The position numbers were made by a program, and so were the translations under genes. The notes beneath the pieces are model-generated. The model was not told where the DNA came from. It saw nothing but the letters and a program-made list of their open reading frames with translations, and made no database searches. Below, piece by piece: positions 3,796 to 62,700 of a stretch of 64,000 nucleotides of DNA; positions within the stretch are counted from its first letter, which is position 1, and every line of letters begins with the position of its first letter. The stretch covers positions 13,533,427 to 13,597,426 of the forward strand of contig JASSKH010000010.1 of assembly GCA_031763025.1 (NCBI GenBank), read 5' to 3'. The DNA comes from Macrocystis pyrifera (taxonomy: Eukaryota > Sar > Phaeophyceae > Laminariales > Laminariaceae).

Positions 3796-4059
3796 GTGTT
3801 GCACGTTACCAGGTATACTGCTGTGCCTTACCTACCGTGGTGCAAAGCTGAGATCTCACAGCTGATTCACGACGGGGGTTTTCTCGCAACTGAACTTAAT
3901 CAAAGGGGTTTTGCCAAAATCAGGTACACACCTGTTCCATTTGAGCCAAGAACAGGTACGTACCGAAACCGAGTGAAAAACACACGCCACGAGCGGTGTT
4001 TCCTGGCCATGAGGAAAATCACAAGCAATTTGTTTGCGCCTGAACATTAGAGTGTGTGG

Positions 4060-5560
4060 CCTCCAAAATCTGAATTGTTTTTGTTTTATTTAGGGTATAG
4101 GTACCACGGGCCCCACTTAAGACCTGCAGGGTCACCAGCCTTCGTTGATTACTGTAGTTTCGCCACGGCGGGCGCGCCAAGAGTATCTGTTGTGGCGCCT
4201 CCCCCCCGTTGTCAGCTTTGAAGCCTCGAGACGATGCTCGCGGAACCGCCTGCTCGGTGCGAAGCTACTTACCATGCCAAACCTGAGGCCACTTCGGCGA
4301 GGGGTGAAGCAGACGGACGGCCGTCTGTGTCAACGATGCTGTGCAAGTGTCTTGCCAGATTCCCTGCGGGGGGGGGGGGGGGCACGACAGTTTTTTTTTT
4401 CTGTATTTTTCCTTTCCTATATCGATTTGTTTTTCTTTGCTTTCTTTTAGTTCTTTTGTTTTCTCCCTTTCAGAGAATGTGTATGTCGTGCCTGTCGTAT
4501 CCAGTGATCATGATGTTCTCGCATTAGCTCAATTCCCTAAAATCCTGCCTGCGGTCACAAAACAGGCTGTAAACAAAAATGCGTCTCGATGGGAGAAAAC
4601 GAACAAGTTCCAGGTACGAAATAGTGTGCGCGGCAGCAGTATCATACCAGTCCGCAAGGGAAACGATGCTAACGAGCCGTGGTCTACCATCCCGTATCAC
4701 TTGCAACCAAATAACACCAGGAAAATACCCATGGTATCAATATGTGCGCTCGAAAATGAAAAGGGAAAAGAAAAGCACCAAGAGAGAGAAAAGAAACAAG
4801 AAATGAAAAATGAAACGAAAAAATAAACGAAAGAGAAACGAAGCAAACATGCGCTCAGGGGCGCAGGCCGAGTCCCGAGGACAAGTGTTGCTGTTTGCCG
4901 GTGCGATCAGTCCTATGTATGTGATGTACCCAGTTGATGGACCAACACAAGGACGTCACAAAAAAGACCAGACGGAAGGCAAGAAGACAAGAAGAGGGTA
5001 GAGACAAAGAGCCGACAACACACAAAAAACGAGCAGTCCGGCGTTCAGTTGGTTGGGTCAAGGACGAAACAACCGACGTAAACAGGACAGAGACCACGGA
5101 AAAACGTCAACAAAATCGGAAGAAGAGGGAACATAGCTGAGGGTCTCGCAAAAACAACAATAAGGTGACGCAGCCGACGCAGAATGACGGGGTACCTACC
5201 ATTCATTGACTTGGCAAGGAAAGAGAGCATCACAACAACCGAAAACAAAACCAAAAACAAACAGGGATTGTAACAGAGCGTTGAGCAGTAGTCACTGGGC
5301 GTCTCCGCTATTAATAGAAAGACGGCCAGTGCCATGTTTCGGCGAGTGCCTTCACTTTTTTTTTTAACCTAGCTGCTGTTGCTACGCCTCCTTCCACGCT
5401 ACTCCTCTTCCTCCCCCCCCCCCCCCCCCCTTGACCTTGGGCCCAACGGCGTCTACATTAAGGTGCTACGCAATTTGTACCTCAAGCGCTCGTCGTTTTG
5501 ATACGTCCCCCTTCTCCTTAATGAACCAACGCTTGAATGTACTGCTCTGCCCCGTCCTCA
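4060..5560. other. No gene seen; low-complexity sequence
   Basis: I see no gene here. The stretch holds a G-run near 4370, an A/G-rich purine stretch at 4755-5140 and a C-run at 5407-5430. Open frames are short and follow the base composition. Confidence 0.6.
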
Positions 5561-5619
5561 ACACATCTGAACCACGTGCCTAAATTCTTCGCTGCCAGCG
5601 TCCACTGTCTCTCTCGTCG

Positions 5620-5851
5620 ATGGGCAAGTTAAACAAGGATAGGTCGCGTTCGAGACAACCCATCCAGTCCTGCTCTTGCCCTCCCAAGCAACCCTCTCCC
5701 CCCTCCCTCCAGTTCCCCAAACATCACTGGTTTGGATGGGCAAGTTAAACAACGTTAGGTCGCGTTTGAGACAACCCATCCAGTCCTGCTCTTGCCCTCC
5801 CAAGCAACCCTCTCCCCCCTCACTCCAGTTCCCCAAACATGACTGGTTTGG
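5620..5851 (+). repeat. Tandem duplication, 2 x ~116 bp
   Basis: Two adjacent copies begin 'gatgggcaagttaaacaa' and end near 'ccccaaacat.actggtttg'. They differ at only a few positions, so the duplication is recent. A 105-codon open frame on the minus strand is simply this repeat read twice. Confidence 0.85.
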
Positions 5852-8305: not shown

Positions 8306-11300
8306 GTATGATACGAGTTGTCGGAATTTTGTTTTTCGTAGGAATTTGTCTTTTTTTTCCGACACCAACAAGGAAGAGTTGCGATGTACCCCGTCCACGT
8401 ATAAATAAGACTTGCAGCAGAGTAGGTTGTTGACTTTGCTTGCGCTTTCTATTAATACAGTCCGGCATGTTTGTACACCTACCGGTCTTAAGAGTGCACC
8501 GAAAATGAAAATAGCTCGATGTTTTTTTTTTCGTTTTTTGTTTTTGTTTTTGCTACTGTAGAAAAATTCAGCCGGTTTAGGTCTGTTGAAAAAAAAAAAA
8601 AAAAAACGAACCGGAGCCCAAACCGAAACCGAAACCGAACCTAAACGAACACTTCTCGGTCGATTTTACGACGAAACCAGCCGAACGAATGGTCATTTTA
8701 ATATTTCGAAGAGTTCGGTGTTGCATACATACTTGGTAGTAACAACACAGAGTGTCGTGAACCGAAAACAAAAAAAGGCTGGGTCGATTTTTGTTTTTTT
8801 TTGTCGATAGTATCTAATACATTGTTTTGTCGAAAGTATCTACGTATTACGGGGGAACATAGTACATAGGACCTACGTTGGACACAAAAACCTGTATCTT
8901 TACCTATTTTTACTAACAATATTTTGTCCTATTTACTATTGACCCCCGTAATAATATACCTGGTACCTGGTATTGGTTTTTCGGGCGTTTAAGGATAGGT
9001 CTGTGGGCTGTGGGCGAGGAATGTCCACATATGCAACGGGATTTCCATATATACACATATGTGGACGTAATCGGCGTAGGTGACACGTAACAAGAAAACT
9101 TGAAAAAAAAAACAATTGGCTTCCGGTTTCGGTCGATGTTAGGCAAACCGAAACACCGACCCAAAAAAGTCCGTTTGGGTCGGTAAATATCAACATTCTA
9201 TCGTAAGGGTGTTACCCTGGGCTGGGTGATTGATCGGTATTTTACCCCTTCGAACAGCTCAGTATGTATGACCGAACCTTACGGTACCGTTTGGAGGCTC
9301 TTTCATCTTCCTGATATTTATTTTGCTACCCAAGGTGCAAAGGCTGTGCAACAGCAGCAGTGCGTATGGTTCAAATGATTAATACCCGTACATGTTTCAA
9401 ATATTATAGCGTATAATTCTCGTATATAGCACCAGGGCGTGTATTATCGTACAGCAGGTTTGCGGAAACAAAAAAAACGCGGCAACAAGATCGTGGCGCA
9501 TTGTGCTCGCCACCATCTCAGGGGTGAGATATAGTGGCATGTATCTCAGGGGTGAGATAGTGGCAAGAGCCCCCTTTTCGTTGGATTGTCACCATCTTGG
9601 GAACTTAGTGGACTAACATTGGTGTCCGTACGAGGTGTGCACATCTATTTTTTGTACGAGGTGCACATCTAGTTTCTTATACGAGGTCCCCGGTGGCTTG
9701 GTAGGTGGTCCGCGCGCCTATCAAGATCAATTTCGTGGGTTCAAGTCTCACCGAGTGCACGCTCGTAGGGACTTTTTCTTGCATAAAAAGATGATCAGCG
9801 GAAAGCGCGAGAGCGTGAGTTAGCTACATTCGATGAAAATCGACGAGCAGTGGGAATGCTGAACCCTGTGCGCGGCAAAAAATAAAGGCACGTGCCGGGG
9901 GGGAGAAGGGACGGCACCTGTGACCACGGCTTGTCCAAGAAGATCGCTGAGGGTAAAATCTCCTACGAGTTAGGCTGGAAAGTAAAAAGTGATGATTAAA
10001 AAAAACAAACAAACAAAAAAAAAACACAAGGTGTACATCTATTTTCTTTAGCACCATGTTTCTGAGCTGAAGATGAAACAGCCACAAAGTGGTGTACCGT
10101 AACGCGCGGTCTCATGGGTAAAATCTCCTACGAGTTAGGCTGGAAAGTAAAAAGTGATGATTAAAAAAAAACAAACAAACAAACAAACAAAAAACACAAG
10201 GTATACATCTATTTTCTTTAGCACCATGTTTCTGAGCTGAAGATGAAACAGCCACAAAGTGGTGTACCGTAACGCGCGGTCTCAGTCAGACCTTCGCATT
10301 TGGCGTCATCGGCCGGACACGGGTTCGAATCGCATTTCGAACGATTTTTTTTTCAAAGAAACGCTTACTCGTGCGTCCCTAAAAACATACGTGTCTCAAT
10401 GGTTCCCCAGGTACCGAAACGAAGCGGGTAGGTCAACGTACGGCCGTAGACGGTACCGTTACGCGTCCCAAAGATCCCGCCGTTCAGAGGGGAGGGGGGT
10501 TTTGCAAGGAAATCTAAAAAAAAATGTTTTTCGGCTCTTTTCGGCTTTTGAAAAGACTACCATTGCTCGGAAAACCAAAAAAAAAAAACGGCGGACACCA
10601 AAAACACATTTTTTCGGCTTTTTCGGCTCGGCCTTTTCGGCTCGCATATTTAAAAAGTCGACTCGAAACATCGAGAATCGGCTGTATTACACGGAAATGG
10701 GCTTTTGTTGTGTTGGAAGCAGGCTCGATCGGCGTGCATTATCAGCAGGGCGCTGCCCACATCGGCCGGCAGGCGTCAGAAATCCGTAGTACTGCTCCCA
10801 TTTTTCAAAACAATTTTCGTTAGAAAGAACATTTTTTTGTCGTTTTGCGCACGGGACGAAAGAAAATTGGGGTTTTAGCAGAATTCGGCACCTGGGACTA
10901 AAAATCGGCCCTCTTGTTATAAGAAAAAATAAATCGATATTTCACCCCTTTAGCTCAGTAGGTAATACCTTCACGTTTGACTTAACGTCGAGGACTCGGG
11001 TTCGAATCTCACTTCGAGCGTTTCTTTTATAGAAACGCTTTGCGCGTGTGGTCCCTAAAGACGTATCTCCCTGGTTCCCCAGGTATTGAAACGAAGCGGG
11101 TAGGTCAGCGTACGGCAGTATGCGTCCGGATGGTCGGCCTTGAAGCCTATGCCCCAGACAGAGAAGGTCGTATGGGCTGGCCTCGACGATGTGCTTGTCG
11201 CCCGTTGCCGCTAGCTAGCCCTCGTCGTAGCCTCGGGTGTTGCGGGAACTTGGAGAAATTGATGTTGAGGACGATGTCGTAGCGGTGTCGTTCCCTAACC

Positions 11301-14300
11301 TGTTCCTCGGCCATCACTTCACAATACGGTACCGACGCCCCAAAGATCCCGCAGGTGAGGGCCGGGGAAAGTTTTTTCAGGAATTACCCTGGGCTGGGTA
11401 ATCGATCGATCTTTTACTCCTACTCGTATAGCTCAGTAGGTAACACCTTCACACCTCTCCCCCCCCAAAGTCGGCTCACGGAAAAATTAAAAAAAAAAAA
11501 AAAAAAAAACGCGTTTCTTTACCCCAAAATCGGCCTTCTCGACCTTTTTCGGTAATGCAATAGCCGGCCGAGGGTCAGCCCTAACTAAGTACGCAGCAGG
11601 ACCGATATACGAAATCGTGAGCCGAGATGGTCTGCTTGTTCTGGTTGGTTGGGTGAGGACGGAAACGACGATACAGCTCGTACCTGGTACGAGCAGCAAC
11701 TGCTGTACACAACAAAGGAGACAACACACTCGAGCGGACGATTTTGTGTCTTGAGTCTGAAGATTATCCTCTACTATTAATTATCAAGAGGCACCCATGG
11801 TACACACGTTGTTCGCAGGTACATAATTGATGCCAATATTGCTGATATATATATATAATGTATATATACGGATTGCGTATAAATTATCGGTACGCGCGAA
11901 CTAACGAAATTGCGAAACAAGTGCGTACAATTATTACCGCTGTAGATTATTGTGAAGGTGTTACCTACTGAGCTACAGGGGTAAAAGGACGATCGATTAC
12001 CCAGCCCAGGGTAATCCTTATAACACTCTTTCCTCCTCTGAACGGCGGGGTCTTTCGGGCGTCGGTACCGTATATGGCCGCACGCTGGCCTACCCGCTTC
12101 GTTTTGAATACCTAGGGAACCAGGGAGACATGCTAATTGGGACGCACGCGCAAGCGTTTCTGTGAAAGGAACGTTCGAAGTGAGATTCGAGCCCGTGTCC
12201 TGCCGACGACGCGAAATGTGAAGGCTTTACCTACTGAGCTTTTAAGGGGTAAAATACCGATGGATCACCCAGCCCAGGGTAAATCCTTAAAACACTGTGC
12301 AGCTGTATGCAGTGATATCAAAACATTTCATATGTAGGCCATAATGCTTCTTCCGTACAGCAGAATAACAGACCAAGCAAGCGCTTTTTCCCTGTCGGAT
12401 ATCATTTTTTTAATAGGTCCCTGCAAACGGACGATAATTAGATAAAACGGTAGTACCAGGCATGGAATACACACCGGAAAAATTGCCCACTTGTGACAAG
12501 CTACGTGCAACCTCGTTTTTTTCTGTCATTTCCCAAATATAGACACACCCACTCGTTGAATTCTGCTGCTTCAGATTTTGTCCTCCTCCTATATACGGAC
12601 TGCCTGTGTTTCCTTCACGAGACCACACAACACCCGCAGTACGCGCGATCGAAGTATCACACACAGCTTTTGCAAATAATATGAGTTACGACCAACTCCT
12701 CGATAGATGTCACAGCTGTTGATTTTAATTTTTCAGAGTATGGCACTCGTGTGATTAGCGCTCTCTCAGTACTCGCGTGGACTACCAGGTGCAAGGTTTT
12801 TGCGTCTATCATAACGACACCCTTTCGTTTGACCCCTTTAGTACCGCAGTCCCGATCTGGGGACAAACCAGTCTAATTTCAAGTGATTTGTCCCCAAAAC
12901 GGGACTGCGGTACTAACACGGTTAAGCGAGCCTAAGGCCTCGCTTGGTATTGGTTGGAAGGGTGTCCGTGCGAATGCAAAACGCCACCACGGGGCTTCCA
13001 TGTAGGCATGGTACGGGGGGAGCTTTGTGCTGGATGGGCGGGTAGACGCAGACGAAACGCGTCGTTTGTATTTTGGAGGAAAACACTGGAATTGCTATCA
13101 CGGGGGTCCATAGTTAATAGGACCTACGATATACATAAAAACCTATATATTTACGTATTTTTACTAACAAAATTTGGTCCCGTTAACTATGGACCCCCGT
13201 AATATGATACGTGCGTAATACTGACGTGTGCGCATCCTTATATGACGTGGATATTGGCTGTAACGGCGGTGAATTACCTCGGAGACAGCGGATAAATTGC
13301 AATTTTTTGAAAGCTAAGGCTGTTGCTGAAAAAAAATATTAATAGTTGGTAATTTTTGAACGGGGAAGGCCAAAGGGCGAGGCTGCTGCTACTGCCGCTG
13401 AGGCCATATTGAATATTCTGCATGATTGAATACAATCGAATTCTGCGCTGTCCTGCGCTGGGCGTGAAAATGGCTGTAGCAACGGTCCGAAGGGCTCTGA
13501 GGCTGCTAATGGTCATACGGTGACCGTAGTCCATATTGAGCTTACTAGGACTGCAGTCCCGTTTTGGGGACATTTGACTCTAATTCTAAGTAATTTGTGC
13601 CCAAAATGAGACTCAAGTACTAAAAGGGTCCAGTCTTATACTACGGTTGAGTGTGCGCGTGAGGTCCGTATCGACCATAAATCGGTGGAACGTGAAATTT
13701 TATGATTTTTTTCCCCAAACGTAACAACCAACAGACTGGACGATTGTCAGCAATTCCAAAATGTCATAGCGCTCCAAGATAACTTGAATATAGTATACCG
13801 AAAGCTCTGCATTGCGTCGCCTGTAACTCTTGATACGTCACGAATTGGCGGTCCATGGCTGTGCCCAGACGTATAAAAGCATGTCCTAACTTTTGGGAGC
13901 AACCGGAATGTTTTTCCGTTTGATGCTGATGTGAAAAACGGCGATAGGCAGGTGTGGTTTTAAGCGTATTTCGGTACAATCTACTCCGCTACTGACAGTT
14001 GTAAAGCGCATCCACTGTTATTAAGAATCGAGGCTAGAGAAAGCTAGTTCGCGATATGGCGCACACTGATGAACAAAAATCACTCCAATCGTACACTCAA
14101 GTGAAAGAGTACCATCCCGTCAAAAAAAAAATTGACTAATTTTTTTATATACATTATGCAATGGGAAAGACGACACGTGAAAAGAAAAAAGCCAAGAAGG
14201 AACTACAAGAGGCTTTGTGAAAAAAACAACGAAGAGTTCCTCGCTCGCACGGGGAAAACAGTAGGAGAAGCGGGGAGAGACAAGCGCGCCGAGAGCATAG

Positions 14301-17245
14301 CGGAGCGCCGGGACTATCTTGCGTTGGGGCGACGCCATGACGGTTCTGCCCGTGCACGCGACGAGGCTGTGACCAAATGTGCTGCTGAGACCGAAGCTCG
14401 CCAATCGGCCGAGAGTCTGACCGAGGAGCGAAAATTGTCACTGGAAATCGAGGAGCGGCGGCGACTTGACACGACAGCGAAACTTTCCGGGGAGCGTCAA
14501 CACCGACTGCACGCGGCTGGCAGAAACGCGCGCAGCACTCGTAGCGGCGCTGGCAGCCGAGGAGGGGCGGAGGTGGGCAGAGGTGGCGAGGGTGGCGAGG
14601 CTGTCGGAGATGGGTCGCCACCTTCCATCGCCTCCTCTAGCTGCTGCGCTGCATGTTGCTGCTGCTCATCCTACCTTGTTATATTCCTTGCGAAGGTTTT
14701 TCCCTATTTTCTAATTCTTGGTCTCCTGAAATGCTTGTGAGCTTTGTTGGTCTCCAATGAAAAAAATGATGACGGCTGCTGTCAATTTTCTTCGTTGTGG
14801 TTGGTCGAAAAAAACGAAATTCATCTCTGCGCACGACGGTCAACGGACACCGATATTGCCGGTACCGGTTATTATAAAAGGGACTTGACGCGCAGGGCTA
14901 ACGGTCGTAGGAACCTAGGCTTGTGGAAGGAACCGATTTTACTTTTTCTGGCGATTTTCGGTCAGGCGGCCCGGATTTCCTGCTTCATATTTCTACGTTC
15001 TGGTTGTATCCCTTGGGGTTTTCTATAGGTTTTCTGGCTTCACCCAGGTCTAAAGGGCAGTGTAAAATAGCAACGGCTTGGTGTTTTCTGTAGGTTTTCT
15101 GGCTTCATTCCAGCTCTAGAGGGCCGTGTAATTAGCAATTAGCAACTCGCTGCGCCGGCACTGCTGCTGTACAAGTATGTGCATTTATATCATACAGGTG
15201 TAGCCATGATGTACTGGAATCTTACGGTGAACCTTGTATCCACTACTCCTTCATACGCTGGCATCTCCTCGTGCGCGAGGTGTGATACGTGCAGATTTAT
15301 CTAAGCAGCGTTTTGATCGTTTCGCGATGATACCTTTGTTAGCGTTTTTGTTGATGCCTGGTTTATATATATACCACTCTGCCCGTCCGTGTAGATAGAT
15401 GTAAGCAACCGTCTGGAATTTTGACATGACTATCGAACGGAGCTTATGCTTCCGGTCAGAGGTAACCCTTTCCTTTTCGCGTTGTGTTTTGCATGCTAAG
15501 TCGCCGTCTGCGGCCGTGCCGGCCTCCGACGTGCGTACTACCAGTACTACGTACTTCTGCCAAGTTTCTTCGTGCACGACTTTTTTTTTTGCCGCTAAAG
15601 TCGGGCTCGTATTTCATGTGATATCAAATGTACCAACTACCGCGCACCCCGCTTGCCCCCGGCTCCGCGTTATGGCAGCACCCCTCATCCCTTGTTGCTC
15701 CCCGTCCCGCTTTTCTTCCTTCCGTTGGCGTTGACTTGTCGTGCTCTCGATGCCGCCCCGATCGTCACTCGTGTTGATGCACAGATGATCGGGAAGCAGG
15801 ACCCGTACTTGAAGCTCTGGGTTGGGCGGGCGGGCACGAAGGTGCAGACCAAAGTGCACGACGGTGGCGGAAGCAATGCCACGTGGGGGGAGTCTTTCAA
15901 GTTCTCTGTCGAGGCGAGTCGTCGCCCCCCGGGGTGCAGTTTTGCGTGCGATGTGCCCCGCTCTTGTAGGCTGTGTTGTTGCATGAATCGTCTCAGGACC
16001 TATCATAACTCTGCTACGGGGGGGGGGCATAGTAAATAGGACCAAATATTGTTTGGTAAAAATAGGGAAATGTGTAGGTTTTTGTGTGTATACCGTAGGT
16101 CCTATTTACTCATGGCCCCCTGTAGTAGATGTTACCTGGTATTTGTTTTGTTGCCGGTGCTACTCGTATGAGTTGTCGTTAGGATGTTACAGCAGTAGAG
16201 TCCCCCCGAGCTACTGAATGTACCTTGGTAAGATGTTGAGTGGTTACTACCTGGTAGTCAGTACCAGCCCGCGCTAAGCCGCCGTTGACGCCATTCTTTC
16301 GAGGATTTGTTCATATACTTTCAGTCCCCTGAACTACTTCTAGGTAGTAAGAGGCTACGAGTTAGTAGTGGTCTACCCACTGAAACTAAGCTAATCCTAT
16401 AAATATTGTCCATGTCGTGTTTTGCGTGTTTTTTGCGCCAGTAGCAGTAATCGAGACCGCGACATGACCTGCGTTGTTCGGGCTCTCGCGCGTCGATATT
16501 TTGACGCAAGTAGGTATGATTTCGCGTGGCGAAAAAAATGCTTTTACTGTCACGGGCCGGGATGTATACTCGTACATCTAGACACTTTGTTTGTAGACAT
16601 GACACGTATCGGGCTCTGCAACTCTCGTTCGTCTGCCATCACGGAAGAGGGAAGCGTAGGAGTCGTCCTGCTTGCTTTCGGTGTGTTGAAGCTCGTTTTT
16701 TTTTTTGTGTGTGTGTTTGCCGTTTCCTCCAAAAATGCTCTGCACAGCGGTTGCAGGCGGAAGAGTACCTCTACTTCAAAGTCAAGAACAAGAATATCAC
16801 GGACACCAAGACCATCGGCTCGGGCAAGGTGGCAATAGAGTGAGAACCAACGTCTCGTATTTTGTTGTGTGGAACCAATATGCTCGCGAAAGTACAAACA
16901 TCTTCATGCTGCTGCGCGCGTGTCGCTCATCTCCTCACGTTGCGCTTCGGATGCATCCTCTCCCCGCCTCCCCCCGGCAGCCCGGACTGCTCGGTATGGC
17001 CGAAAGCTGTACGTACTGCAGTCGTCAGTTTTGTTTTCGCCCATTTCTTCAACCAATCAGAACACCCCCCTTAGAAGAAAAAGGGACCAATCGGAAAACT
17101 GCGGGCAGGGAAGCAGCTTTTCTCGCGTCGTTCGACCTGTGCGTCGCGGTCGTGCAGAACGACGCGCTCAGGTGGCGGGCGCACACCCGCGACGAGTACT
17201 ACAGATTATTTTTAAGTCGTCCCGTCCGCATCGTGACAATGACTC

Positions 17246-17278
<33 letters not shown>

Positions 17279-20226
17279 GTTACAACATCGGTCACGCATC
17301 GCAGCCGTGTCATCGCATGATGGGATGAGGGGGTGCTCCCGAACTGCTGTGTGATAAGCTGTGCCACAGGCGCGCAGGCAGCACGGCTGTACAGCAGTGT
17401 GGTGGTCCCTCTATGGTGCTGGTTGAGTAGGGTCGGTTGCCCGCTATGGGACCTATGGAATCGCTTCGCGCACACGGGGATTTATGACCGGTGCGGCAGT
17501 GTGCGGAGCAGTGCCGATATTTTGTTGGCTGGCGCATGCCTGCGCTGTGGAGGGGCCGCTGCCGCCGTACTCGTACTGCTGCACGCTCTTCCTTGATTGA
17601 CGCTTCCTGATATCGCCACAAAATCGTCGTTTTCTTTGCCTCTACACTTATCATCGAATCAAAAGGGTTCGTAGGCTTCGTACCTGGTATTTAATATTTG
17701 TGAGACAAAACGTACCAGATGCGACTAAAAATAAAGTGCTGCTATATAGATCGAGCAACGTTTAACCCCCTCTCGCAACTGTTGGAGATGACTGGCAAAA
17801 GGTTTTGCACGCAATATATGAAAACAACTTAATGAGCGCCCAACTGTTGGAGGTGTCTCTGTTAAGAGTAGGGACGGTGCATCCGTCTCGAAAGGGATGC
17901 GTGATCAATGGCCAAGTGACCAAGGCAAGCAACAGATGAGTACGCCCCCCCCCCCCCCCCCGCCCTCCACGCCTCCCTAACCAATCTATCCGTCTGCGAC
18001 CATGATTCTTCATCTCAAGGACATTCGGACCCACCATGGAAAGAAAGTGGTACAGACTCTATGACCCCAACGGGAGGGATGCCGGAGAGATACTCTTGGA
18101 AGCGAGGTTGAGCCGGCGAGGGGACAGAACCGACGCCACGGGAGAGCATGGCGGGAACGTGCTCAAGTGAGATTGATGCGGTTGTGCGCTGCGCACGGAG
18201 GGAGAGAGAGAGGGGGGCGTTTCATAGTGTGACGGTTACAAAATCACGGGAAGGGGGCGGGGGTTGTACTCTGTTGTGAACTTGAGATGGCATGCTTTGG
18301 TGAGCTTAAGATTCATGTGTGGTGGCCTTGTTAAAGACTTTGAATTTCATGTCGGGTGAACCTAACATTTAGATTTTATGTGTGGTGACCTTAAAATTTA
18401 GTTTTCCTCATCCGCCAGAGGTTGAAAAAAAAAACACACACACACAAACACACACAATATCCATTTTCCGTGTTCGTTTCCATTTGCGGAGTTTTTTTTT
18501 TCAGCAATCACCCATCGGAGAAGAATCCTGACAGCAGTGGCATCGTCGACGGTCTGATTCGTCCGCATCCCGACCCCAGCACTGACATCCAAGCGGAAAT
18601 ACAAAAGTTTGTTTGTCCCATACTCGTAGTCGATGTCCCATGCGTTTTCACCGCGCTTTCCTGGCCTTGTCGGGGTGTGTGCTCACGAGCCCGGAACTTG
18701 CTTGTTTTCCCCCCTTCATACCTTCGACGACTATGACACAGCAAGCATGTACACTGTCAATAGAGCTTACGGCTTGACCGACTACGGTAGCTCGGCCAAG
18801 ATGGTTGACACTCCACGCCACCAACTATTGAATACATGTTGATTCCGATTCCGAGAACTCTCCCGAGAGGTCGGGGTTAGGGTTTAGGTTATGTAATTGT
18901 TGAAAAGCGAAGTGTGTATTAAAACCGTTTTGTCCAGAAGCTCGGCTGAGTCGTATCAACGGCGGCAGCAAGCAGCAGCAGCAAGAGCAGCGGCAGCGGC
19001 AGCAGCACTGTAACACTAGAGTGGGTCGGAGACTCTAATCAGCGAGTTCCGTTCAGATTTCATGACGGGGTCGTTGTTTTTTGTCGATCGTATGCCTGCG
19101 CAGGATTCTCTTAATTTTTTGCTTTAGTCTCCAGACCCTGCCAGAGCAGGGGTTTCCCATCCATTGCGCGGCGCGCGTTTAAAGTCCGCGAAAGCTATAT
19201 GATGCCAAGCAGCAGCAGAACTCGGTGGCGCTGTAGGCTACGCACACACCTTTTCTGTGCATATTTTGTTGGCGTGAGTGACGAATGTCTTTTTTCGCTC
19301 CTTCGCGATTTCCGCCCTTTCGAATCGGACGAACCTCCCCCTTGGCCCTTGACCACTGCAACCATTTTTTGGGGGGACATGCTAACTACTCGGAAGTAGT
19401 GTGGGACACTTTTTTTTGTCAGTGCGCAGTGTAAGTAAGGGTGTAATGAACGGACAGTGCGTGGGCAGCGCTCATGGACAGAAAAAGAAGGTGGAAATCA
19501 CGGAGGAGCAAAAAGACCCTTCGTCACACCCTCCTTTCTCATCGTGTGCGCGCGCGCGTTTGTGAGTGAACCAATGAAGGAAAAATGAGGTAAACAACAA
19601 CAAAAAAAAAGTTGGGCGGTTGCTGTTACTCGTTCTTGCTCGCATTGAATTAATTGGCTTGTTCTCGGAAAGGTGACGCACCGCCCCTTCACGTCCGTCG
19701 CATGCTCCTCCTTCCCTCGCCCTCTTCACGTTTTTTTGTTTGCACACCCGACACTCGTGTTCGGGCGCGCGGCAGTGCGTCGGCAGGTAGAGGAGCGCCT
19801 TCGGGGGGTCCGACGGCACCAATGGCGTGGAGGACCGCAGGGGCGCACTCCTCTACTCGGCAGCACTATTCCACGAATCCGGTGAGGAAGGTTCCTCCGT
19901 AGGGCAGCTATCGGATTATCTCTCCCGCTTTCTAACCTCTCTTTCCCCGATGTATAGGCTAGATTAGATGCCGTGCCAAACTATTGAATGGCGTCCATAC
20001 CGTGGGTGGCGGCATCATCCACGCTCGTGTTCAGGCCTTCGCTTCCGCTCTCTCCTCTGCTTCTCCACACGATCATCATCGCCGTCATCAACCGGTAGTG
20101 TTACTTTTGCGGCATCCTCCCCGCCCACAATCAGCTGAAAGTTGCTGGGCCCCGCGTACGCTAGGTCCTGAGGTTGACGCGCTGCATTACTGCGTCACTG
20201 TGGAGAATTACCTTCGGCACGGCTCA

Positions 20227-20268: not shown

Positions 20269-23200
20269 ACTCGATATCATGCATGGCAGTACCCTCCCAT
20301 CTCTACAATGCCGGGACGGAGCTCGTCGGGTTTTCACCGACCAGGCAGACTTTGCTTGCACCAAGCGCGAAGCGCCGTGAGGTGTTGGGCGAGTCGCATG
20401 AAGGGTGAGCTGCATCCTACCAAGAACCGCTTCAGAGGCGGGTTTTCTTGCGTATGGATGACAAGCGTCAATGAATTAATTTATTTTCTGGTGTGGCCAC
20501 TTCCAGAGACAGCAATGGGAGTACTATGTAACCTCCTCTTGGGTGCGTTACCCTAAACACTACGTGATACGATCATCCTCCTTGTACGGAGTTGAGGTTC
20601 TCCCCGCACCGAAATGATATGATTCCACCGCCAGCCATGGTGACCGCCAAAAAAAAAAAAAAAACGCACCCTGATTGTCCAGTTCACGCAGTGAGAGGCG
20701 TGTTTTACAGAGTCGTCGCCAACCGACGCCAGCCCAACCTTTATATCTCCGTTGGCTTGGTAGGTGGTCCGCGTGCCTAGATCAATTTCGTGGGTTCGAG
20801 TCTCACCGAGTGCATGATCGTAGGGACTTTTTCTTGCATAAAAAAATGATCAGCGGAAAGCGCGAGAGCGTGAGTTAGCTACATTCGATGAAAATCGACG
20901 AGCAGTGGGAATGCTGAACCCTGTGAGCGACAAAAAAATAAAGGCACGTACCGGGGGGGGGAGAAGGGACGACACCTGTGACCACAGCTTGTCCAGAAGA
21001 TGCTGAGGATAAAACCTCCTACGAGTTAGGCTGGAAAGTAAAAGTGATAATTAAAAAAAAATGAAAATGTATATATATACAAGGTTACCCTTCGGGATGT
21101 GGGTAACGTGAAATCCCGGGGGCGTCGCAAGTTGAAAAAGGAGTCACAGGTAACACCCGTGCCGCTGTTCTTGGCGGAAACGGGAGCCACGGGTTAGCGT
21201 GTTGCTCGAAGGAAAGAGTACTAATGATTAATAGTAGTCGGAAGGAACCGAGTACTACTCTTTTTTGTGGTGGACACTATACTACTACATGCACGCGGTA
21301 CCATCGGTTGACTACTACACCGTCACTATACACCACCACCACTACTACGCAGATGTTGTACGGGTAGAAGCAACATGCACTCTACAAAATACTACCTGGT
21401 ACACTACTGCGACTGCCAACTATACTGGTACAAAGTATTACTGCTGACCAAACCCTCATACAATCTACAGACAATCTCAAACAGAGAGGTCGTATAACCA
21501 CGCGGTACCATGGATAGGGGCATGACTGCTATAGTATACTGTTTCTACACACCACCAGTAATACGTAGATAGATGCAGTACAGGTAGAAGCAGCATGAGT
21601 AAATACTGCACTACAATACCTACTACTACAGAACTGTTTGTTCCTATGATAGTACTAAAGCTTCCATACAACGGCGACGCAGCATGCAAGCGGTACTATG
21701 AGTTGGGGGCATTTACTATATATACTGCTACTACTCTTCTCAATGTACACCAATACAACTACGCAGATGGATGTACTGCTGTACTGTAGTAAAAACGGTA
21801 GAAGCAGCAAGCACGCTACAAACTATACCTGGTACTATGATACTATCACGACTACTCTTAATAGTGATGATTTCGTAAATGTACAGGCTATACCTATTCT
21901 ATACGGCGATTGATGGCATCTACTGCTATTTGCCACAGCGGTACCATGAGTTGGGGGCATGCCTGTTGTTATTACTATACTGCTGTTACTCTTAATGTAA
22001 ACCACAACTACTACGCAGATAGATGTACTGCTGTAGTAAAGGCTGAAGCAGCATGCACGCTACAAACTACCTGGTAACAAAATACTACGACTACTCTGTA
22101 ATATACCTGGTATAATAGATGATTTTGTACGTGTACAGGCTATCTATACCTGTTCTATACGGTTGTGGGCATCTACAGTAGTAACTTGAGCACATATGGG
22201 CCAGGTATATACATAGCAGCAGCAAGCAGAGGTAGACGGGCCGAGGTAGCCAATTTTGTGTTCGCGTATATGTGCTCGATGTGAGGTGTGTGGTGTATAC
22301 GTCAAAGGGCTATAGGTGAAACATATACGACGCTCGACAGACGTGTATTGCTGCTGCTTGCTGTATCTGCTGCTGCTTGCTGCCGAGGTTGATAAAAAGC
22401 GGGCGGTTTCAAAATTATTGAGATTTTCAACGCAGAGAACATTATATAGGCAGAGAAAATTCTCGTGCTCGCGCGGGATTGATTACATTGTTGACTGCTG
22501 CGAGCTCGCGGGTAGGTTTCCAAGCCCATTGCACAGGGAAAAAAGAGCACGAGACCACGATCACTCGATTGCTCGACCTGGTGAACACTGCACACACCCT
22601 ATGCGAACACTGCTGTTGTACTGCTGCTGCTGTTGTAGTGCGCACCGTGGCTGCACGTTGCTTTTGAAATACGGAGGAGGTGTGAGTTCGTACGAATCGT
22701 CGTCCTGCCCCTGCGCAGCACACCTTTCTCGAGATTAAAATATTATGTACGTACGTGGATGTGTTCGTTCCTACTTCCTAGGTTGACAGGAATCACGGCC
22801 CACACACGCGCACGCACAAACAAATGCGCTATCCGTGGCCGTCACCAAAGGGAGAGCTTGATGAACGACCGTTGCTATGCCGTGGCTGCCTCTGTAGAGA
22901 GGTCGAGGGACGGTGTGTGATCAGACATGATATAGCAGCAGCCAGTTTTCAGAAAGAAATATTTGAAATTGTGGGGTTTCCAATGTCCTGCTTGGCTCTA
23001 ACATGTCGGAATCATTCCCCGTAGTTATTTGCCAGAATTCGCGACTTCAGAGGCCCAGAGCACGCGCCACGGACCTCGGCCGGGGCTCGCATTAGCGCCG
23101 TGGTGTACACGTGGGCTCCCTGTGTGCCACGCAGCCTAGTGTGCGAGAGGAGACCCGCGGTCGGACGAGAAAAGTAAAATATTCCGGAAAAAAAGTTGAT

Positions 23201-30183: not shown

Positions 30184-30639
30184 GGTACGGTTGAGAGCAA
30201 GAACCCACCCACGGCTGTGCGTGGGGGGGGAGTCGGGCCGTAACGTGTGTTTCGGGACCATAACCTTTGTGTGCATGCGCAGCATGTTGTGGTTTCTCCT
30301 GTACGAATCTAGAGGAGTCATCTTATTCAAGTATCAAATACCTGGTATTAAGTTTCTTTTTTTTTTTTCCGTACGTACGTGGGCGTTTTTGGTACGGTAA
30401 TTCTAGGATCTCTGATGTTTAGAGATAATCTCCCCCCCTTGACTTGCTCATTTTTCCCTTCGTGAATGCCAGGAGAAACGGGAAGGAAGAAATAGATGAA
30501 ACATAGTAAATTTTAAAATCCCAACCAGGTCTGCAAGCATAGGGGACGCAGGGCAGACAAACATCCTGTCGGTCCTCTTGATGGGTGGCATCGTCGTCTG
30601 GACGTTTCGGACCTCCGCCCGATTCCGGCCCATGGAGCC

Positions 30640-47692: not shown

Positions 47693-47804
47693 GGGAAAGG
47701 AGGGTTTGACGAGACGCTTCTTCCAACGCCAACACTCCTTTGTCGATGTCGGTGTGCCTGCCCCCCGGGTTTCGGACTAACTCAGCTCGAAAATTCGTTC
47801 AAAC

Positions 47805-48679: not shown

Positions 48680-48789
48680 TGTTACGGGGGGGCATAGTAA
48701 ATAGGACCGAATATTGGTGGTAAAAATAGGGAAATGTATAGGTTTTTTGTGTGTGCCGTAGGTCCTATTTAATGTGGTCCCCCGCAATA
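48680..48789. mobile_element. MITE-A copy
   Basis: 'tgttacggggggggcatag' to 'ggtcccccgcaata'. Complete. Confidence 0.8.
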
Positions 48790-48791
48790 CA

Positions 48792-49564: not shown

Positions 49565-49805
49565 CCGGGGGGGGGGGGAGGGAGGGCGTATACATTTGTT
49601 GCTTGTTTTAGCCATTTGACCATTGGCCACGCATCTCTTTCGAGACGGAGCACCGTTCCTACTCCTAATAGAGACACCTCCAATAGTTGGGGCGCTCATT
49701 ACGTTGTTTCCATAAAATATTACCAGGTATTACATATATTATTATTTTTAATCGTATCCCCTTCCTGTCTGGCCGCCTGCGGCCGACATCTATCGGGCGG
49801 CGGAG
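49565..49805 (+). mobile_element. Repeat C, long copy
   Basis: G-tract, 'gcgtatacatttgttgcttg', core, 'cattacgttgtttccataaa', then the distal part 'cgtatccccttcctgtctgg', which otherwise occurs only at 6518-6660. Confidence 0.8.
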
Positions 49806-50353: not shown

Positions 50354-50599
50354 GCTGTTGTATACCTGGTGGGCGGTATGCAGGATGTAAATGTTACCTG
50401 GTATGTGTAGGCGACAATAGCGGGGAGCTTTAGGGATCCTGATAATATATGCGCATGCAATGCATATCAATCTATTGCTTACGCATACAGACACACAAAG
50501 TACAACATGCACATATTGTATATCATGCCATTGATGTATGATATGATACGATTCGAATATATTACAGCAGCAGCAGTATGTATGCCTGTATGACCAGTG

Positions 50600-51115: not shown

Positions 51116-52180
51116 GTAGTAGTATGAGAAATCGAGGATGGATGTGTGCCGGCAAAATTTGTTACGCTCTTCACAGCGTTTTTGGGTATGTTTTTTTGTT
51201 CAGTTTTCGTCATTTGACTGTGAGATAAATGTATGTGTGCGGTTATGGGCTGTGTCTTTTATATTATTAATATTAATAGTATGTACCTCTCTCTCCTGTT
51301 TGAATTCGATTTCAAAACAATATATATATAGTAAATGGATATACCTCTCTTGTTTGAATTCGATTTCTAACAATCAATATAAAATACGTCCTACTCCATG
51401 TCCAGCATGCTGTGCTTTGCTCGGATATATGCGTTTGAAGGTATATTACATAATATTAATATATGCATGATGAACTCTGTCGAAAAGATTGAATGCTGCT
51501 CATTTTTATATATATACATACCTGGTAGATATATTGAAGTCTTATATATACTCGTGCACTCTGTGCGCTCTCACTTTGGACTCTCTTTCTTCTTGTCCGC
51601 GCGTCATGTGTCATGTTGCCATGCCATCTCCGCATACATACGTAGTATCTCCGCCAACAAAGACAATTATTATGTATATAGCAATAATAACAACAACAAA
51701 AACGCAACCATCTGCTCGTCTCGCTCCTTCCTCTCTCTTTCTTTTTCTTTGTTTCTGCCGCGTACGTCGTATGACACCAACTTTTTATATATGTATGTAT
51801 ATACCTGGTATATTATGATATTAATTATCATACGTCGTGGTGTGTTATAATGTGCGCCATCACGTCAGTCATCAACACCCTTCGATTTATGGTGCCGAGT
51901 TCCTCCTTCGTGCGTATGGTCGCGACGCTCTCTCCCGTCCACCCACACACGCACACACACGCGCTTTTTTCTCCTTTCTCCGTCCTTTTTCTATTAATAT
52001 TATTATTTTAAAATTAATACGTAATCACTATCGATAGTAAAATATAGTGGTATAGTACTGCTACTAACTGTGTCCTGACCTTCAACGGCGTGCACATACC
52101 AGGTAGTAGATGCATACCCGTCACGTACGTACGTGTGGTGTAGTTAATTATTAATATCATTAATTAATAGGAACGCATGA
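51116..52180. other. AT-rich stretch, no gene seen
   Basis: Contains three TACCTGGTA/TACCAGGTA sites and many TA and ATT runs. Open frames here are translations of AT-rich sequence. Confidence 0.5.
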
Positions 52181-52413: not shown

Positions 52414-52835
52414 ATGAGTATCGTGTGCGGGTGGGTATGTATATAAGATGGTATAAACACATTTTTCACTTTTTTTCACGTCGTCTGTCTGTGAGCAGGG
52501 TATATATACTATATAGTGTGAGTGACACACTTATTCTGAGGAAGTCCCGTTTGGTTGTGGAGTGAGTCGATATTATTATTGCTTTAATAATAATGTAATT
52601 AATTGTATACTGCTGCCGCTGTACTCTGACACACACCCTGTTCGTTGTTGTTTCGGTTCATATAACAGTAAGTATTTATTTGTGTGTTAAGACAACATAT
52701 AATTATTATTGTTATAATAATAACACACATACATATATATTTATCTGGTAAATAATACCAGGTACAACAATGTGAAATAATAATATTAAAATATTAAGAA
52801 TGTGACGTGAACTATATATAATACCAGGGGATCAC

Positions 52836-54602: not shown

Positions 54603-54647
<45 letters not shown>

Positions 54648-55297: not shown

Positions 55298-56180
55298 GTG
55301 AGAGCGCCCTTCGCTTCTTGTGAACGACTACGTACAACAGAGTAGGAATGCACCCTACTCACTACGTACGAGCTGCTACCGACCCATCCGCATTAGGTGG
55401 TATCTGGTGTCTCCTGGGTATAAATAAGATGATGACCATATGGCTTATTCTATGGCTATATTCTACCAGGTGTTTAGTTTTTCGGTGCAGGTTGAGTTTT
55501 TGGCGGGAGTGTATGTACTCCGTTCGGGCTATATTTTACCTGCTATACGTGTTTGGTTACGTGTATAGGGGGGAGGGAGGGGGCGGTTGTCGAGACGATG
55601 GTGCTGCTGCTGATGCTGATGCTGCTGCTGCTGATGCTGCTATTGGGTCCGTCCAAACCAAAGGGCTTTCCTCTTCATACATTTTCTCTTCATCCCATTA
55701 TATTTCGGTATCACACGAATACGTACGTATGTACGTACCAGGTATCAATTTTTTCTTTTTTCTCGTTGTATTTTTTTTCGTCTCCTTCCCTGGTATACGT
55801 ACAGCCTCTCTGTCGTGCGACTCGTCCAAGTGTAAAAATCCTACCACCGGGGTATGCGCTTTGCCAGTACGTACGTATACATTTACCTGCTGGTACGTAC
55901 CAGGTCAGAGACCTGGAATGATATTGGTGTGTTCACGTGCACGTATTTTTCGTTTTGGCAGCATCCAGATGTTGCGCGTGTATAGCTACACAGCGGTATA
56001 TCGTATACGTGCTGCTGTATTCGGAGGTAGTTTTGTTTATTCGGTACGAATTCGGTACGAATGCCGTAGGTAACCTACACCAGATATGCCAGAGTGTTTA
56101 TTAGACGAGGCGTATTACGCAGCTTGCAAAGTTGAGTATCAACTATTTAATCAGTCGAACTCACAGCTGACGTATTTCAA
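55298..56180. other. Gene 2 downstream intron or flank
   Basis: Begins with the donor gtgaga. It contains a (GCT)n stretch at 55600-55640, three TACCAGGT sites and repeated 'acgtacgta'. No following exon could be identified. Confidence 0.4.
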
Positions 56181-57465: not shown

Positions 57466-58061
57466 ATAGGTACCAGGTATTAAGTAGTCGAGTGTACAGC
57501 AGTATTTTTTTTTCTTGTGCTCCCTTATCGGGGTTATGCTTTTCTACTTTTTGTGATAAGAATAATCATACCTGGTACATACAAACATATCAGGTATTTC
57601 AATGCCAAGTCTATGCTCATGTTTGTTCTCGAGGCGAAGTTGCAGGTGAAGTATGTAAGTGACGGAATTGTAGGGTTTCAACCCACTGCCTGTCCGATCT
57701 CTTTTGTCTGTCGTCCCCCTCTCCTTTTTTTGTCTTTTTTTTCCATGTCGTATATATTTTGTCTCGGAATTTTTTTGCTCTCCTTCCTGTTAGGGCTCAT
57801 TCTTATCGGATAGCTTTTTTTCCAGAATTTCCAAAGTTTGAAAATAATTGGAGATATGTATCAAGTTACGGAGGCGTTCTGTCAATATTCGTGAAATTCG
57901 CCAGAAGCAATAAAATCATGTCTGTTGAATTTTACATCTTTTGAGAAAAAAATCAGAAAAATCTGGCAGATAAAAAAAATGCGCGGAAAAAAAAAAAAAA
58001 AAAAAAAACGGAAATTGGGGAAAAAAGCTCTCCGTTAAGAATGACCCTAATATTAATAGTC

Positions 58062-58205: not shown

Positions 58206-59300
58206 TGTATTGCGCTCTCACAGCAGAGCAGTTGATTGTTTTATTTTTGCGAACAAGCTCAAAATCTCAACACGTTGGGATTTGCACTCCCATCAACATT
58301 TAGTTCGAGGGTACTGAACGCTGTCATTAATAATACGAATATTTACAGAGCATCGGGGCGATGTGTCCGTGCAATTGTTCTTTTCGGAAATCACACCAAC
58401 AAGAACTACTGCTTTCGTACCTTCGAGTACGTACCCAACCAAGGGTCTACCTGGTATACCGCCGTATGATATTGTGTCAAGTCGTACTATTAATATTCAG
58501 TATCAATACTGCTGTACTGAGACTGCTGTAGTCATACCGCTATATTTTTCGGTACGTCCACGTGAAGGTACAGGGAAAGGGATGCAATTGTTGGTGCCAC
58601 CGGTGTCGCTGCCACCGGTGTCGCGCTGTTGTCGTCTTTCGTGTTGCTCGTCGTCGTCGGGACATGGTTAGTCTACTCCTACAGAATACTCGTTTGTAGT
58701 CTGATTCTTTGCGATTAAATTTCCATGCACATTATTATAGGCATATATACCTGCATGGTGGGTCAATTGAAACGAAATTCAAAATTGAGAGGTTGTAAAA
58801 TCTAAAAAAAATATCACGTTCAACATCCTCAAGGTTCACTTTCTTGGGTCTCTCACTCAGATGAGTGAATGGTTTCGTCGACTCTCCCGCTCATTGTTTT
58901 CCACTATTTTGATATTTTTCCTTTCAGTCGACTGATTCACTGCTGCTCCGGTTTGAACACGTACGTAGACTGCTGGAAAGTATACCTACCGTACGTACGA
59001 TACATGCGCCGTATGTCGACAGCAACAGCAGTACGACGAGTAGTACATGACGATTACAATCAGTACATCAGCGGTATCGGGCACACGAAGCAGCCTGGGC
59101 TGGTATCAATCTACCAGCTGCACTACCCAGCAGTGTGACTCGAAATATAATTCGGATTTTAAAGCAGTCTATAATGAAGTGAAATGGGCGAATCACGAGG
59201 TGGAAAACATTGAGGAGGCGTTTTTACTAAGGGGGGGTTCCATCCCTGGATTCGTGACATTTTAATATTTTTTGCGATCAGGCGTTTTCTTTAATAGTAT
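58206..59300. other. No gene I can support
   Basis: A direct 18-bp repeat ('tgccaccggtgtcgc') occurs twice at about 58596-58630. A TACCTGGTA site is at 58447. Open frames are short and without known domains. Confidence 0.45.
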
Positions 59301-60420: not shown

Positions 60421-60850
60421 GTTATTGTCGTTCGATTCCCCTTTCACTTTGTCCAAGTCAGTATCTCCTCTGCCGAAGGGTCCGAAGCGTCCGTTGCGCG
60501 AGTTGACATCCACGCCGTCTGCTGTCTGCTGCTCGTACATATCGCCTTCACACCCCGCGAGACTTGCTCGTACGAGCACGAGTGGTCTGCGGTAGCTTTC
60601 TTCAGGTCGCCCTGAGCGAGGTTGCCGTTGGTACTGCCTTCCAGCATGCTCGACCAGTTGGTCCCAGTTGTTTTTTGATGAAGTTGTTTCGAGTTGCCTT
60701 CGGGAGAACACTTCTAGGGCCAGACATCTCAAAAGCAAAAGCACAAGATGGTATGTCGTCAACCGGCGATTCTCGCGAGAGAGGTCTGCTGTCTGGCTGG
60801 GTCTTGCGGTGGCGCTGAGGAAGGGGTGCCTCCGATTTTCTGGAAACAAG
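60421..60850 (-). pseudogene. Probable N-terminal part of the transposase
   Basis: A 151-codon minus-strand frame (NNWDQLVEHAGRQYQRQPRS, then RNGRFGPFGRGDTDLDKVKG) lies directly upstream in transposase orientation. The Arg/Gly-rich linker before a Lys/Asp-rich stretch fits the DNA-binding half of such transposases, but the helix-turn-helix is not clear. Confidence 0.4.
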
Positions 60851-60949
60851 CGGATTCGGGAGTTACAGTGAGATAGATTCTCGCGAATCCGGTGCAGAAA
60901 GCGGGGTTGCAGTAAAACGTAAAACAGCGGACGTTATGCCGCAAAAACC

Positions 60950-62700
60950 TAGATCAGGCTTACATTTTGAGCCAGACTCCCCGACACGGAGGTACTACAG
61001 GTACTTCGGTATGCAGTAAACAGAGTGGACAATGCACAACGCAAGGCCATGTCATCGTACTGGATACGACGTACGCAGTATAGCATGCGTTGGAACATGA
61101 AAAAAAACGGAACGAAGAGAAACAAAGTGAATCGGAAAAAAAAGCTTGTACTTTTAGTACCCCTCGAAAGGAGATGTGGCAGCACCATACAAAAAAAAAC
61201 AAACAATAGAAACAAAACCGCAGGAAAACACACTGAAGAAACAATACTACAACATGGACATTACGAAAGAACGAAAGAAAAGGACCGGCAAACTGACTCA
61301 CGACGAAAGCACACGTTCCAGTTAGCCGCAGCAGTTTGTTGTTGTTGTTGTTGTTATTGTTTGTTTTCTTGACATTAAACCGTTCTTTCTACCCGTCGAC
61401 ATCCAGCACAACCAGTGTCCGTGCCGATTCTTCAATCCTAGAGAGACTGGAGATACAAGTTCTGTGGTCACAAAGCTACGCCACAGAGATTCTACGTTGC
61501 CACGTATGCAATGCAATGCCAAGTCATCGTACTGCCTGCGCACGACAGGCACGACATACACACTCCATGACCTAGAGAAACGAAACGAAACAAAGAGAAA
61601 AAAAAACAAAACAAAGAAGACAACTCGAAAGAGAAAGGGCTATACATTGATACCTACTATAATAGTCGGCCTACCTTGCTACGTATATCCTGCCTGCCGT
61701 CTTCTTACTGCTTTCATCAACAGCGGTTTCCCTGCGACGGTTTCCCTCTCCCTCCCTCCCACTCCCCTTTGAACGCCTCCCGTACAGCGGATGTGTACGC
61801 AGCGCTTCCTACTCCATGTCGCCTGATCTGTTTCGAACACGAACGACACAGAACGAAGAAATAACCAACGCCTAAAAAAAAAATACTCGCGCATCTAAAA
61901 CAATGAAATAACTTGATGAAGCTGGAAGACGAAAGACAAGACATAACAAAAATTCATGGAAATATGAATACGTACATACCTGGTACGTACGTACGTAACT
62001 AAAACAATGAAAGAAGCTTGTACGAACGACTTATTGGTTTTCAATAGGCAGAAATCGAAGCCAGAAAGCGACCACCACGACACAACATGTCAATACGAGG
62101 GGTTGTATTGTTGTATCGCTGTCGTGCGCGGTCCTGGGGGGAGCTGCGACAATTAAACGACAACAAACGGAACTACGAACACCAGTGAAGTGAAGCGGAA
62201 AGAGGACACCAAGGAAAACACCGAGCAAACAGGCTCGCCACCCATCCAAGCAAAAGCCAGGCAGGACTTATTTCATATCACAACACAGAAAAGGGAAGGA
62301 CAAACTATAAACACGATTAGCGTCACATCGAAGCAGCCGCAGAGGTTTGCGGTACGAGTTGCCCCAGACAGATTCTACCGATGATTAAATAGCCGGCTTG
62401 GTGCATACCTTGCTACCCTGTCGGCTGCCTCCTTCCTGCTTTCGTCAATCTGTTGCAGCACCCCCCCCCTCGCGTATTTTTGCGGCCCCACCAGAACGGA
62501 TGCGTGGCGTTGTCTACTCATATCCGCCCCATCCTTGTGCCACCTGAGCATGAACCGTTCGGCTGCTTCGAGGCCGCTCCGTTACCACTTGTACCCGTAT
62601 TCTTTGGTGCAACGGTCCACACGTCGGTCTTAACTCCAAACTTGAACGGAGATTTTTTTCGTGGACCCCCCGATGACACATAACACCCTGAGGGCTTCAA
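60950..62700. repeat. Diverged repeat block, two or three related units
   Basis: 'catgtcatcgtactg' near 61049 and 'caagtcatcgtactg' near 61523 head related segments with A-rich 'gaaacgaaac' tails. 'taccttgctac' with 'gcctgccgtcttcttactgc' near 61672 recurs diverged near 62407. A unit at 61375-61480 is the reverse complement of 7210-7440. No gene is seen. Confidence 0.5.

What the first reader, a model, noticed from the sequence alone, without database searches (positions are those of the whole stretch)
3800..62000. TACCTGGTA / TACCAGGTA motif heavily over-represented
By eye at least 25 exact copies occur, for example at 3807, 8957 (two overlapping), 11676, 16130, 16249, 17680, 21403, 21826, 22066, 22103, 23236, 30339, 32046, 41949, 49720, 50393, 51527, 51798, 52096, 52755, 55736, 57470, 57562, 58447 and 61977. 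A random 9-mer on both strands is expected about 0.5 times in 64 kb. The sites are not inside the MITE or SINE bodies. Several extend to ATACCTGGTAT, and at 11671 the motif sits in a longer palindrome (gctcgtacCTGgtacgagc). It could be a protein-binding or chromatin site, an origin-like element, or the scar or target of a small mobile element. I know of no described element with this signature.
Basis: partly seen in the sequence, partly recalled or inferred. Interest (0 to 1): 0.8.

Follow-up and report, generated by a model that had tools for sequence, protein, structure and literature searches.

The report
Jumping-gene scars across giant kelp DNA
A nine-letter DNA word that recurs throughout this kelp genome looks like the scar left each time a mobile element landed at a TA and left again, and the element itself was not found.

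Summary
TACC(A/T)GGTA occurs 26 times in the window (0.65 expected) and 121,279 times in the window's 537 Mb genome, against 2,421 for the reversed word. The word is a late insertion: repeat copies often differ by CC(A/T)GGTA beside a TA (pairs empty 18, filled 2, unclear 79; control words 47, 406, 855). One-step variants show excess transitions (62 against 16 expected), as decaying neutral DNA would. 5,620 places carry two copies sharing a TA; 2,018 of these mix A and T, so they record separate events. The TA has a two-sided target preference. Best reading: excision footprint of a TA-targeting, Tc1/mariner-like cut-and-paste element, built like the Sleeping Beauty footprint TAC(A/T)GTA but with five bases between the TAs, where passages read give 2-4. 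No source element was found: no CCWGG-ended family in a limited search of 264 kb, and relatives of the window's mariner remnant seem to have other left ends. New variant of a known kind.

The parts
3807..3815 (-). scar TACCAGGTA
8957..8972 (+). double scar TACCTGGTACCTGGTA (two copies sharing one TA), next to the end of a MITE copy
11681..11689 (+). scar TACCTGGTA inside a longer palindrome not seen at the other sites
16133..16141 (+). scar
16248..16256 (+). scar
17681..17689 (+). scar
21393..21401 (+). scar; a 72% identical paralogue in L024 lacks the 7 bp
21826..21834 (+). scar in a diverged local repeat array
22068..22076 (+). scar; a 68% identical paralogue in L024 fits the version without the 7 bp better (weak case)
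22104..22112 (+). scar absent from the neighbouring repeat unit near 21870 (a 13 bp difference, so not a clean 7 bp)
23237..23245 (-). scar
30339..30347 (+). scar
32048..32056 (-). scar CACG-TACCAGGTA-GTGT in a repeat copy; three paralogues shown read CACG-TA-GTGT, one (L025) carries the word at the same TA
20561..20562 (-). empty TA, paralogue of the scar at 32048
41952..41960 (-). scar
49721..49729 (-). scar inside a repeat copy; paralogues lack a 13 bp stretch that includes it
50395..50403 (+). scar
51519..51527 (+). scar
51802..51810 (+). scar
52097..52105 (-). scar
52756..52764 (-). scar
55736..55744 (-). scar
57471..57479 (-). scar
57569..57577 (+). scar
58448..58456 (+). scar
61977..61985 (+). 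scar

Best explanation
Nearly every TACC(A/T)GGTA here is the excision scar of a cut-and-paste DNA transposon that inserts at TA and duplicates it. Inferred cycle: an element with ends reading 5'-CC(A/T)GG inward inserts at a TA, giving TA-CCWGG...CCWGG-TA. Its transposase later cuts one strand at the TA and the other five bases inside each end, leaving CCWGG as 3' overhangs on the broken chromosome. The two overhangs pair (four G-C pairs around one central A/T position, with a mismatch if both ends are identical), are ligated, and leave TA-CC(A/T)GG-TA. Shown here: the gain of the word at a TA, the repetition of such events at one TA, the target preference and the decay of old scars. Inferred: the element, the cut five bases in, and the repair step.
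For: (1) Repeat copies without the word carry a bare TA at the same place. Of 71 sites testable in 264 kb, 16 have a spanning paralogue, 7 of these at least one empty copy and 2 at least one filled copy (both of the 2 also have empty ones); pairs were 18 empty, 2 filled, 79 unclear, against 47, 406 and 855 for 500 of 892 control TAnnnnnTA sites. Best case: L017:3700, whose 95.5% identical copy in L019 differs from the empty version by one base within 20 bases on each side. (2) 5,620 places genome-wide read TACCWGGTACCWGGTA, 0 for the reversed control. 1,409 are A..T and 609 T..A; these 2,018 mixed pairs are not plain copies of one 7-mer. (3) Scars sit at TAs with a symmetric preference: R at -1, W at -3, A at -6 (0.50 against 0.25), T or A at -7; with doubles left out, TA at -7/-6 in 35 of 132 half sites against 0.071 of background; TANNNNN before the word occurs 32,697 and 29,687 times, doubles included (reversed controls 213, 229). 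(4) One-step variants: transitions 62 against 16.4 expected, transversions 57 against 32.3. (5) The form TA-CC(A/T)GG-TA copies the Sleeping Beauty and Frog Prince footprint, listed as C(A/T)GTA (PMC3878927, passages; TACAGTA or TACTGTA in PMC3432063, passages).
Against: No source element was found: 264 kb holds no TA-flanked inverted-repeat family with CCWGG ends, within the limits of that search (14-base ends with at least 12 matching, 40-1,500 bases apart); PF13358 has no match in the genome and PF01359 none (where the control genomes did not ring either, so that answer says little). Relatives of the window's mariner-like remnant have G-rich left ends, TA-GGG in two of them, not CCWGG; their right ends were not determined, and a block reading GCCTGGATACC or close to it lies some 30 bases inside the left ends, so a link is unlikely but not excluded. 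Passages give 2-3 nt overhangs or 2-4 bp footprints for Tc1/mariner; here it is 5. Laboratory footprints vary, while this one is very uniform. At 49721 and 22104 the difference is 13 bp, not 7. In one search, 79 of 99 pairs were unclear. Doubles number 5,620 against 575-2,033 expected from independent insertion with the measured preference, A..T exceeds T..A 2.3 to 1, and same-base pairs are 3,602, more than half; these are not fully explained.
Confidence: 0.75

Rival explanations
1. A binding site (transcription factor, insulator, origin protein) kept by selection at about one per 4.4 kb.
For: Sharp palindrome; weak symmetric preferences beyond it.
Against: It is gained as an insertion duplicating a TA, stacks in mixed pairs, and its one-step variants show the transition bias of unselected DNA. 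No binding or chromatin data were available.
Confidence: 0.06
2. A 7 bp insertion made without any transposon departing, for example templated repair of TA breaks or an aborted transposition that only left its ends.
For: No source element was found; the word is very uniform.
Against: A repair process would need a fixed CCWGG template at a very large number of sites. The TA duplication and two-sided target preference are what a transposase does (inference).
Confidence: 0.12
3. Programmed germline excision of TA-bounded sequences, as for ciliate internal eliminated sequences, leaving a fixed scar.
For: The published assembly comes from one female gametophyte culture (PMC10498591, passages), so elements present only in another life stage would be unseen; that ciliate IES are TA-bounded is recalled.
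Against: The excess of one-step variants suggests that old scars are inherited as plain DNA; no developmental data were available.
Confidence: 0.04
4. Fragments of one dispersed repeat family (MITE or SINE) that happens to contain the word.
For: Some sites lie in repeats.
Against: The 72 flanks in 264 kb share no sequence beyond 9 bp except short preferences, and where a copy of the same repeat could be judged it lacked the word in 18 of 20 pairs (79 more unclear).
Confidence: 0.01

Closest known systems
Excision footprint of Sleeping Beauty and Frog Prince (Tc1/mariner superfamily)
   Same: TA at both sides, a self-complementary core with one central A/T position, one TA gained; footprint given as C(A/T)GTA (PMC3878927, PMC3432063; passages).
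   Different: Five core bases (CCWGG) instead of three (CWG); 121,279 natural copies; no element found.
Stowaway / Osmar5 footprints in grasses and in yeast
   Same: TA-bounded scars carrying terminal bases of a mariner-type element (PMC1925063, passages).
   Different: Those vary (1-4 bp fragments beside the TAs) and five putative forms were described at one locus; here one form dominates genome-wide.
Footprints of ZB (Tc1/mariner) and Passer (pogo)
   Same: Cut-and-paste elements with small scars (PMC7913693, PMC9976928; passages).
   Different: Reported as 0-3 bp and 0-4 bp; here five.
HIP1, the highly iterated palindrome of cyanobacteria (recalled, from no call)
   Same: A short palindrome hugely over-represented across a genome.
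   Different: This word is gained by insertion at TA.

Membership tests
Tc1/mariner-type excision footprint | TA target that is duplicated | tested here: met
   Empty paralogues carry a bare TA; pairs 18 empty, 2 filled, 79 unclear, control 47, 406, 855
Tc1/mariner-type excision footprint | Few terminal bases left between two TAs, complementary with a central A/T position | tested here: met
   TA-CC(A/T)GG-TA; TACCSGGTA only 2 in 264 kb against 72. That the bases are an element's ends is inferred
Tc1/mariner-type excision footprint | Overhang or footprint of 2-4 bases, as in the passages read | tested here: not met
   Five bases here; 2 or 3, 2-4. A usual value, not a definition of the superfamily
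Tc1/mariner-type excision footprint | A resident element whose ends match the scar | tested here: inconclusive
   None in 264 kb within the limits of the search; the whole genome could not be searched for unknown ends
Tc1/mariner-type excision footprint | DDE transposase of that superfamily in the genome | tested here: inconclusive
   A mariner-like family with 12 matches at about 10 places, the window's included, exists, but its left ends are G-rich; PF13358 none; PF01359 none and control silent; PF03184 not answered
Tc1/mariner-type excision footprint | Symmetric, AT-rich target preference around TA | tested here: met
   72 sites against 11,630 background TAs, those next to CC or GG left out; genome counts
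Binding site under selection | Conserved against decay and not gained by insertion | tested here: not met

The most novel reading that the evidence does not exclude
A TA-targeting transposase lineage that cuts five bases inside its ends, or a host process domesticated from one, has excised elements on the order of 100,000 times in the kelp germline with almost uniform repair, so that scars greatly outnumber the elements. In the boldest form excision is a regular step of the kelp life cycle, comparable to ciliate IES removal, and the elements are missing because the sequenced stage has lost them.
Probability: 0.12. Interest if true: 0.9.

Novelty: new variant of a known kind. Interest (0 to 1): 0.62.

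Why it matters
If right, some 120,000 identical orphan scars record the activity of a transposon that repeat annotation, which needs longer sequence, would miss (inference). They would let one count past jumps, date them from scar decay, and read a transposase's target preference without having the transposase. They would also be an overlooked source of 7 bp frame-shifting insertions in kelp. The five-base core would extend the range of Tc1/mariner-like cutting.

Tried and rejected
Rfam and tRNA scans of the window: nothing. Pfam scans of 20 of the 106 stop-to-stop ORFs of 110 aa or more listed: no match over a curated cut-off. Paired TIR search for TACCWGG...CCWGGTA in the window: matches look like chance among scar ends, best 14 of 16 at 50395/52105. 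Second enriched palindrome TACCCGGGTA: a simple 8 bp satellite in L018, L019, L024 and L025, not a scar. TAGGWCCTA: part of the MITE body. The window's mariner-like remnant as the source: not supported by its relatives' left ends, right ends undetermined. A scar in one such copy (L033:945) is absent from the other copies it aligns with, but the stretch is low-complexity and the alignment poor, so I do not lean on it. A fixed orientation of the central base toward the neighbouring TA: suggested by the first 50 listed doubles (22 A..T, 1 T..A, 27 same), but the full counts are 1,409, 609 and, by subtraction, 3,602, and after removing doubles single scars are 26,277 against 24,867 (my arithmetic and the doubles, triples ignored), so there is almost no bias; the first listing came from small contigs that look partly duplicated. 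The mixed doubles stand; 'same' doubles may include plain 7 bp tandem duplication. Paralogue test on one-step variants (60 transition and 57 transversion sites): transitions 2 empty, 0 filled, 14 unclear pairs; transversions 10 empty, 12 filled, 15 unclear: right direction, too few to lean on. Dropped rows: loci L002-L009 were in the first paralogue run (86 sites, 33 with a spanning match) but left out because several overlap each other on one contig, so that a site meets itself; L009 is a near-identical copy of L004/L005 and keeps the word. Literature searches on the letters and on kelp or genome-wide footprints: listings only, nothing relevant among the rows shown (40 of 217; 15 of 41; 12 of 340; 8 of 9).

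Full report
Observation. A third-order Markov model expects 0.65; every single-base variant occurs 0-4 times and TACCGGTA not at all. The window lies in a 537,376,219-base genome of 223 contigs. The paper on the giant kelp genome gives 537 Mb and 223 contigs (PMC10498591, passages read), so the organism is very probably Macrocystis pyrifera. Genome-wide the word occurs 121,279 times, against 2,421 for the same pattern read backwards: one per 4.4 kb, a 50-fold excess. This counts copies, not events: scars multiplied inside larger repeats are not subtracted.

It is an insertion. In the first paralogue comparison the copy at 32048 reads CACG-TACCAGGTA-GTGT, and its relative near 20561 reads CACG-TA-GTGT. 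I then fetched 200 kb around the window and tested the 71 of 72 scars with enough flank: 16 have a paralogue spanning the site, 7 of these have at least one paralogue that matches the version without CCWGGTA clearly better, and 2 have one that matches the filled version; by pairs 18 empty, 2 filled, 79 unclear. For 500 of 892 control sites of the form TAnnnnnTA the pairs are 47 empty, 406 filled, 855 unclear. The cleanest case is L017:3700: its 95.5% identical relative in L019 differs from the empty version by one base within 20 bases on each side. Two sites do not fit exactly: 49721 and 22104 differ from their relatives by 13 bp including the word. Sites 32048 and L025:5578 share one TA in one repeat family, so they may be one event; the seven sites are then six events.

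It happens repeatedly at one place. TACCWGGTACCWGGTA occurs at 5,620 places, control 0. Of these 1,409 are A then T, 609 are T then A, and by subtraction 3,602 have the same base twice. A 7 bp slippage copy would keep the base, so the 2,018 mixed places point to two events (unless the central base changed later). A model with the measured target preference expects about 1,280 doubles (575-2,033) from intact scars alone. The surplus may come from scars since decayed, from slippage, from duplication of larger repeats, or from something not understood, and the A..T excess over T..A is not explained.

It decays like unselected DNA. In 264 kb there are 72 intact copies (2.3 expected). One-step variants are 62 transitions against 16.4 expected and 57 transversions against 32.3; the central base was left out of this count.

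The target. With the word removed, the remaining TA shows a two-sided preference in 72 sites against 11,630 background TAs (those next to CC or GG left out): purine at -1, A/T at -3, A at -6 (0.50 against 0.25) and T or A at -7. A TA at -7/-6 is seen in 42 of 144 half sites, or 35 of 132 with doubles left out, against 0.071 of background. Genome-wide, 32,697 and 29,687 copies have TA five bases before the word in the two readings, doubles included, against 213 and 229 for the reversed patterns. This is the kind of pattern a dimeric transposase makes on its target (inference).

Mechanism. Sleeping Beauty and its kin insert at TA, duplicate it, and on leaving cut one strand three bases inside the element, so the donor keeps 3-base overhangs that form the footprint (PMC7827188, passages; PMC3878927, passages). 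A table in PMC3878927 lists the Sleeping Beauty and Frog Prince footprint as C(A/T)GTA, and PMC3432063 used TACAGTA or TACTGTA as primer ends for it (passages). TACC(A/T)GGTA is the same design with two more bases: overhangs CCWGG pair with each other except at the central base, which ends as A or T. The longer, G-C-rich pairing could explain why the scars are so uniform (inference). The five-base value lies outside the 2-3 nt overhangs and 2-4 bp footprints in the passages read.

The missing element. A TA-flanked inverted-repeat search in 264 kb (14-base ends, at least 12 matching, 40-1,500 bases apart, simple sequence dropped) gave MITE, satellite and other families but none with CCWGG ends; longer elements or shorter repeats would escape it. 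Of 249 TACCWGG in 264 kb, 144 are followed by TA; of the other 105, 41 are followed by TG or CA, as decayed scars would be. The window's broken mariner-like transposase (about 59.6-60.8 kb, minus strand) has 12 matches at about 10 places, itself included. The left ends of its relatives, judged by eye, are G-rich, with TA-GGG in L031 and L033; right ends were not determined. A conserved block some 30 bases inside the left ends reads GCCTGGATACC or close to it in the six copies printed; it contains CCTGG but is not TA-bounded, and I cannot say whether it matters. PF13358 has no match and PF01359 none with a silent control. For this reason I say that the word works like, and probably is, an excision footprint, but I do not assign it to a named transposon family.

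Print. Searches for the letters (40 of 217 papers listed, none opened) and for footprints in kelp or genome-wide (listings only) showed no paper describing this; only open-licence PubMed Central papers were searched.

On re-reading the calls I weakened the statements on the mariner relatives, on the extension count and on the literature search, and added the dropped loci.

Noticed in passing
window about 59600-60800, minus strand: Broken plant-type mariner-like transposase (reads VMVDEKWFYTF and SPDSNILDL); 12 matches at about 10 places in the genome, some as near-identical inverted pairs (L032/L034, L035/L036).
   Followed up: partly
L031-L034, L036, L037, some 30 bases inside the left end of the mariner-like copies: Conserved block GCCTGGATACCATCC or close to it, in the six copies printed; it contains CCTGG but is not TA-bounded.
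   Followed up: no
window 1431-1630, 8845-8954, 13096-13204, 34091-34201, 40089-40199, 47583-47693, 48678-48790 and others: Dispersed MITE with ends TA-TTACGGGGG(A/T)CCATAG and a nested TA-flanked inner inverted repeat GTAAATAGGACC about 74 bp apart.
   Followed up: partly
L001:7687-7797: A copy of that MITE sits at the end of a contig filed under a Phycisphaera MAG (JALZVY010000272.1): possibly an algal sequence joined to a bacterial contig.
   Followed up: no
window 682-964: Perfect inverted repeat with 141 bp arms and a 1 bp spacer, within a larger cluster of inverted repeats 486-1161.
   Followed up: no
window 35651-36552: Tandem array of a 129 bp unit with a related stretch at 284-346.
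   Followed up: no
L018:6462-8854: Clustered 8 bp repeat TACCCGGG giving a false second palindrome TACCCGGGTA.
   Followed up: yes
G000, whole genome: A..T doubles outnumber T..A doubles 1,409 to 609, which random resolution of the central base does not predict.
   Followed up: partly
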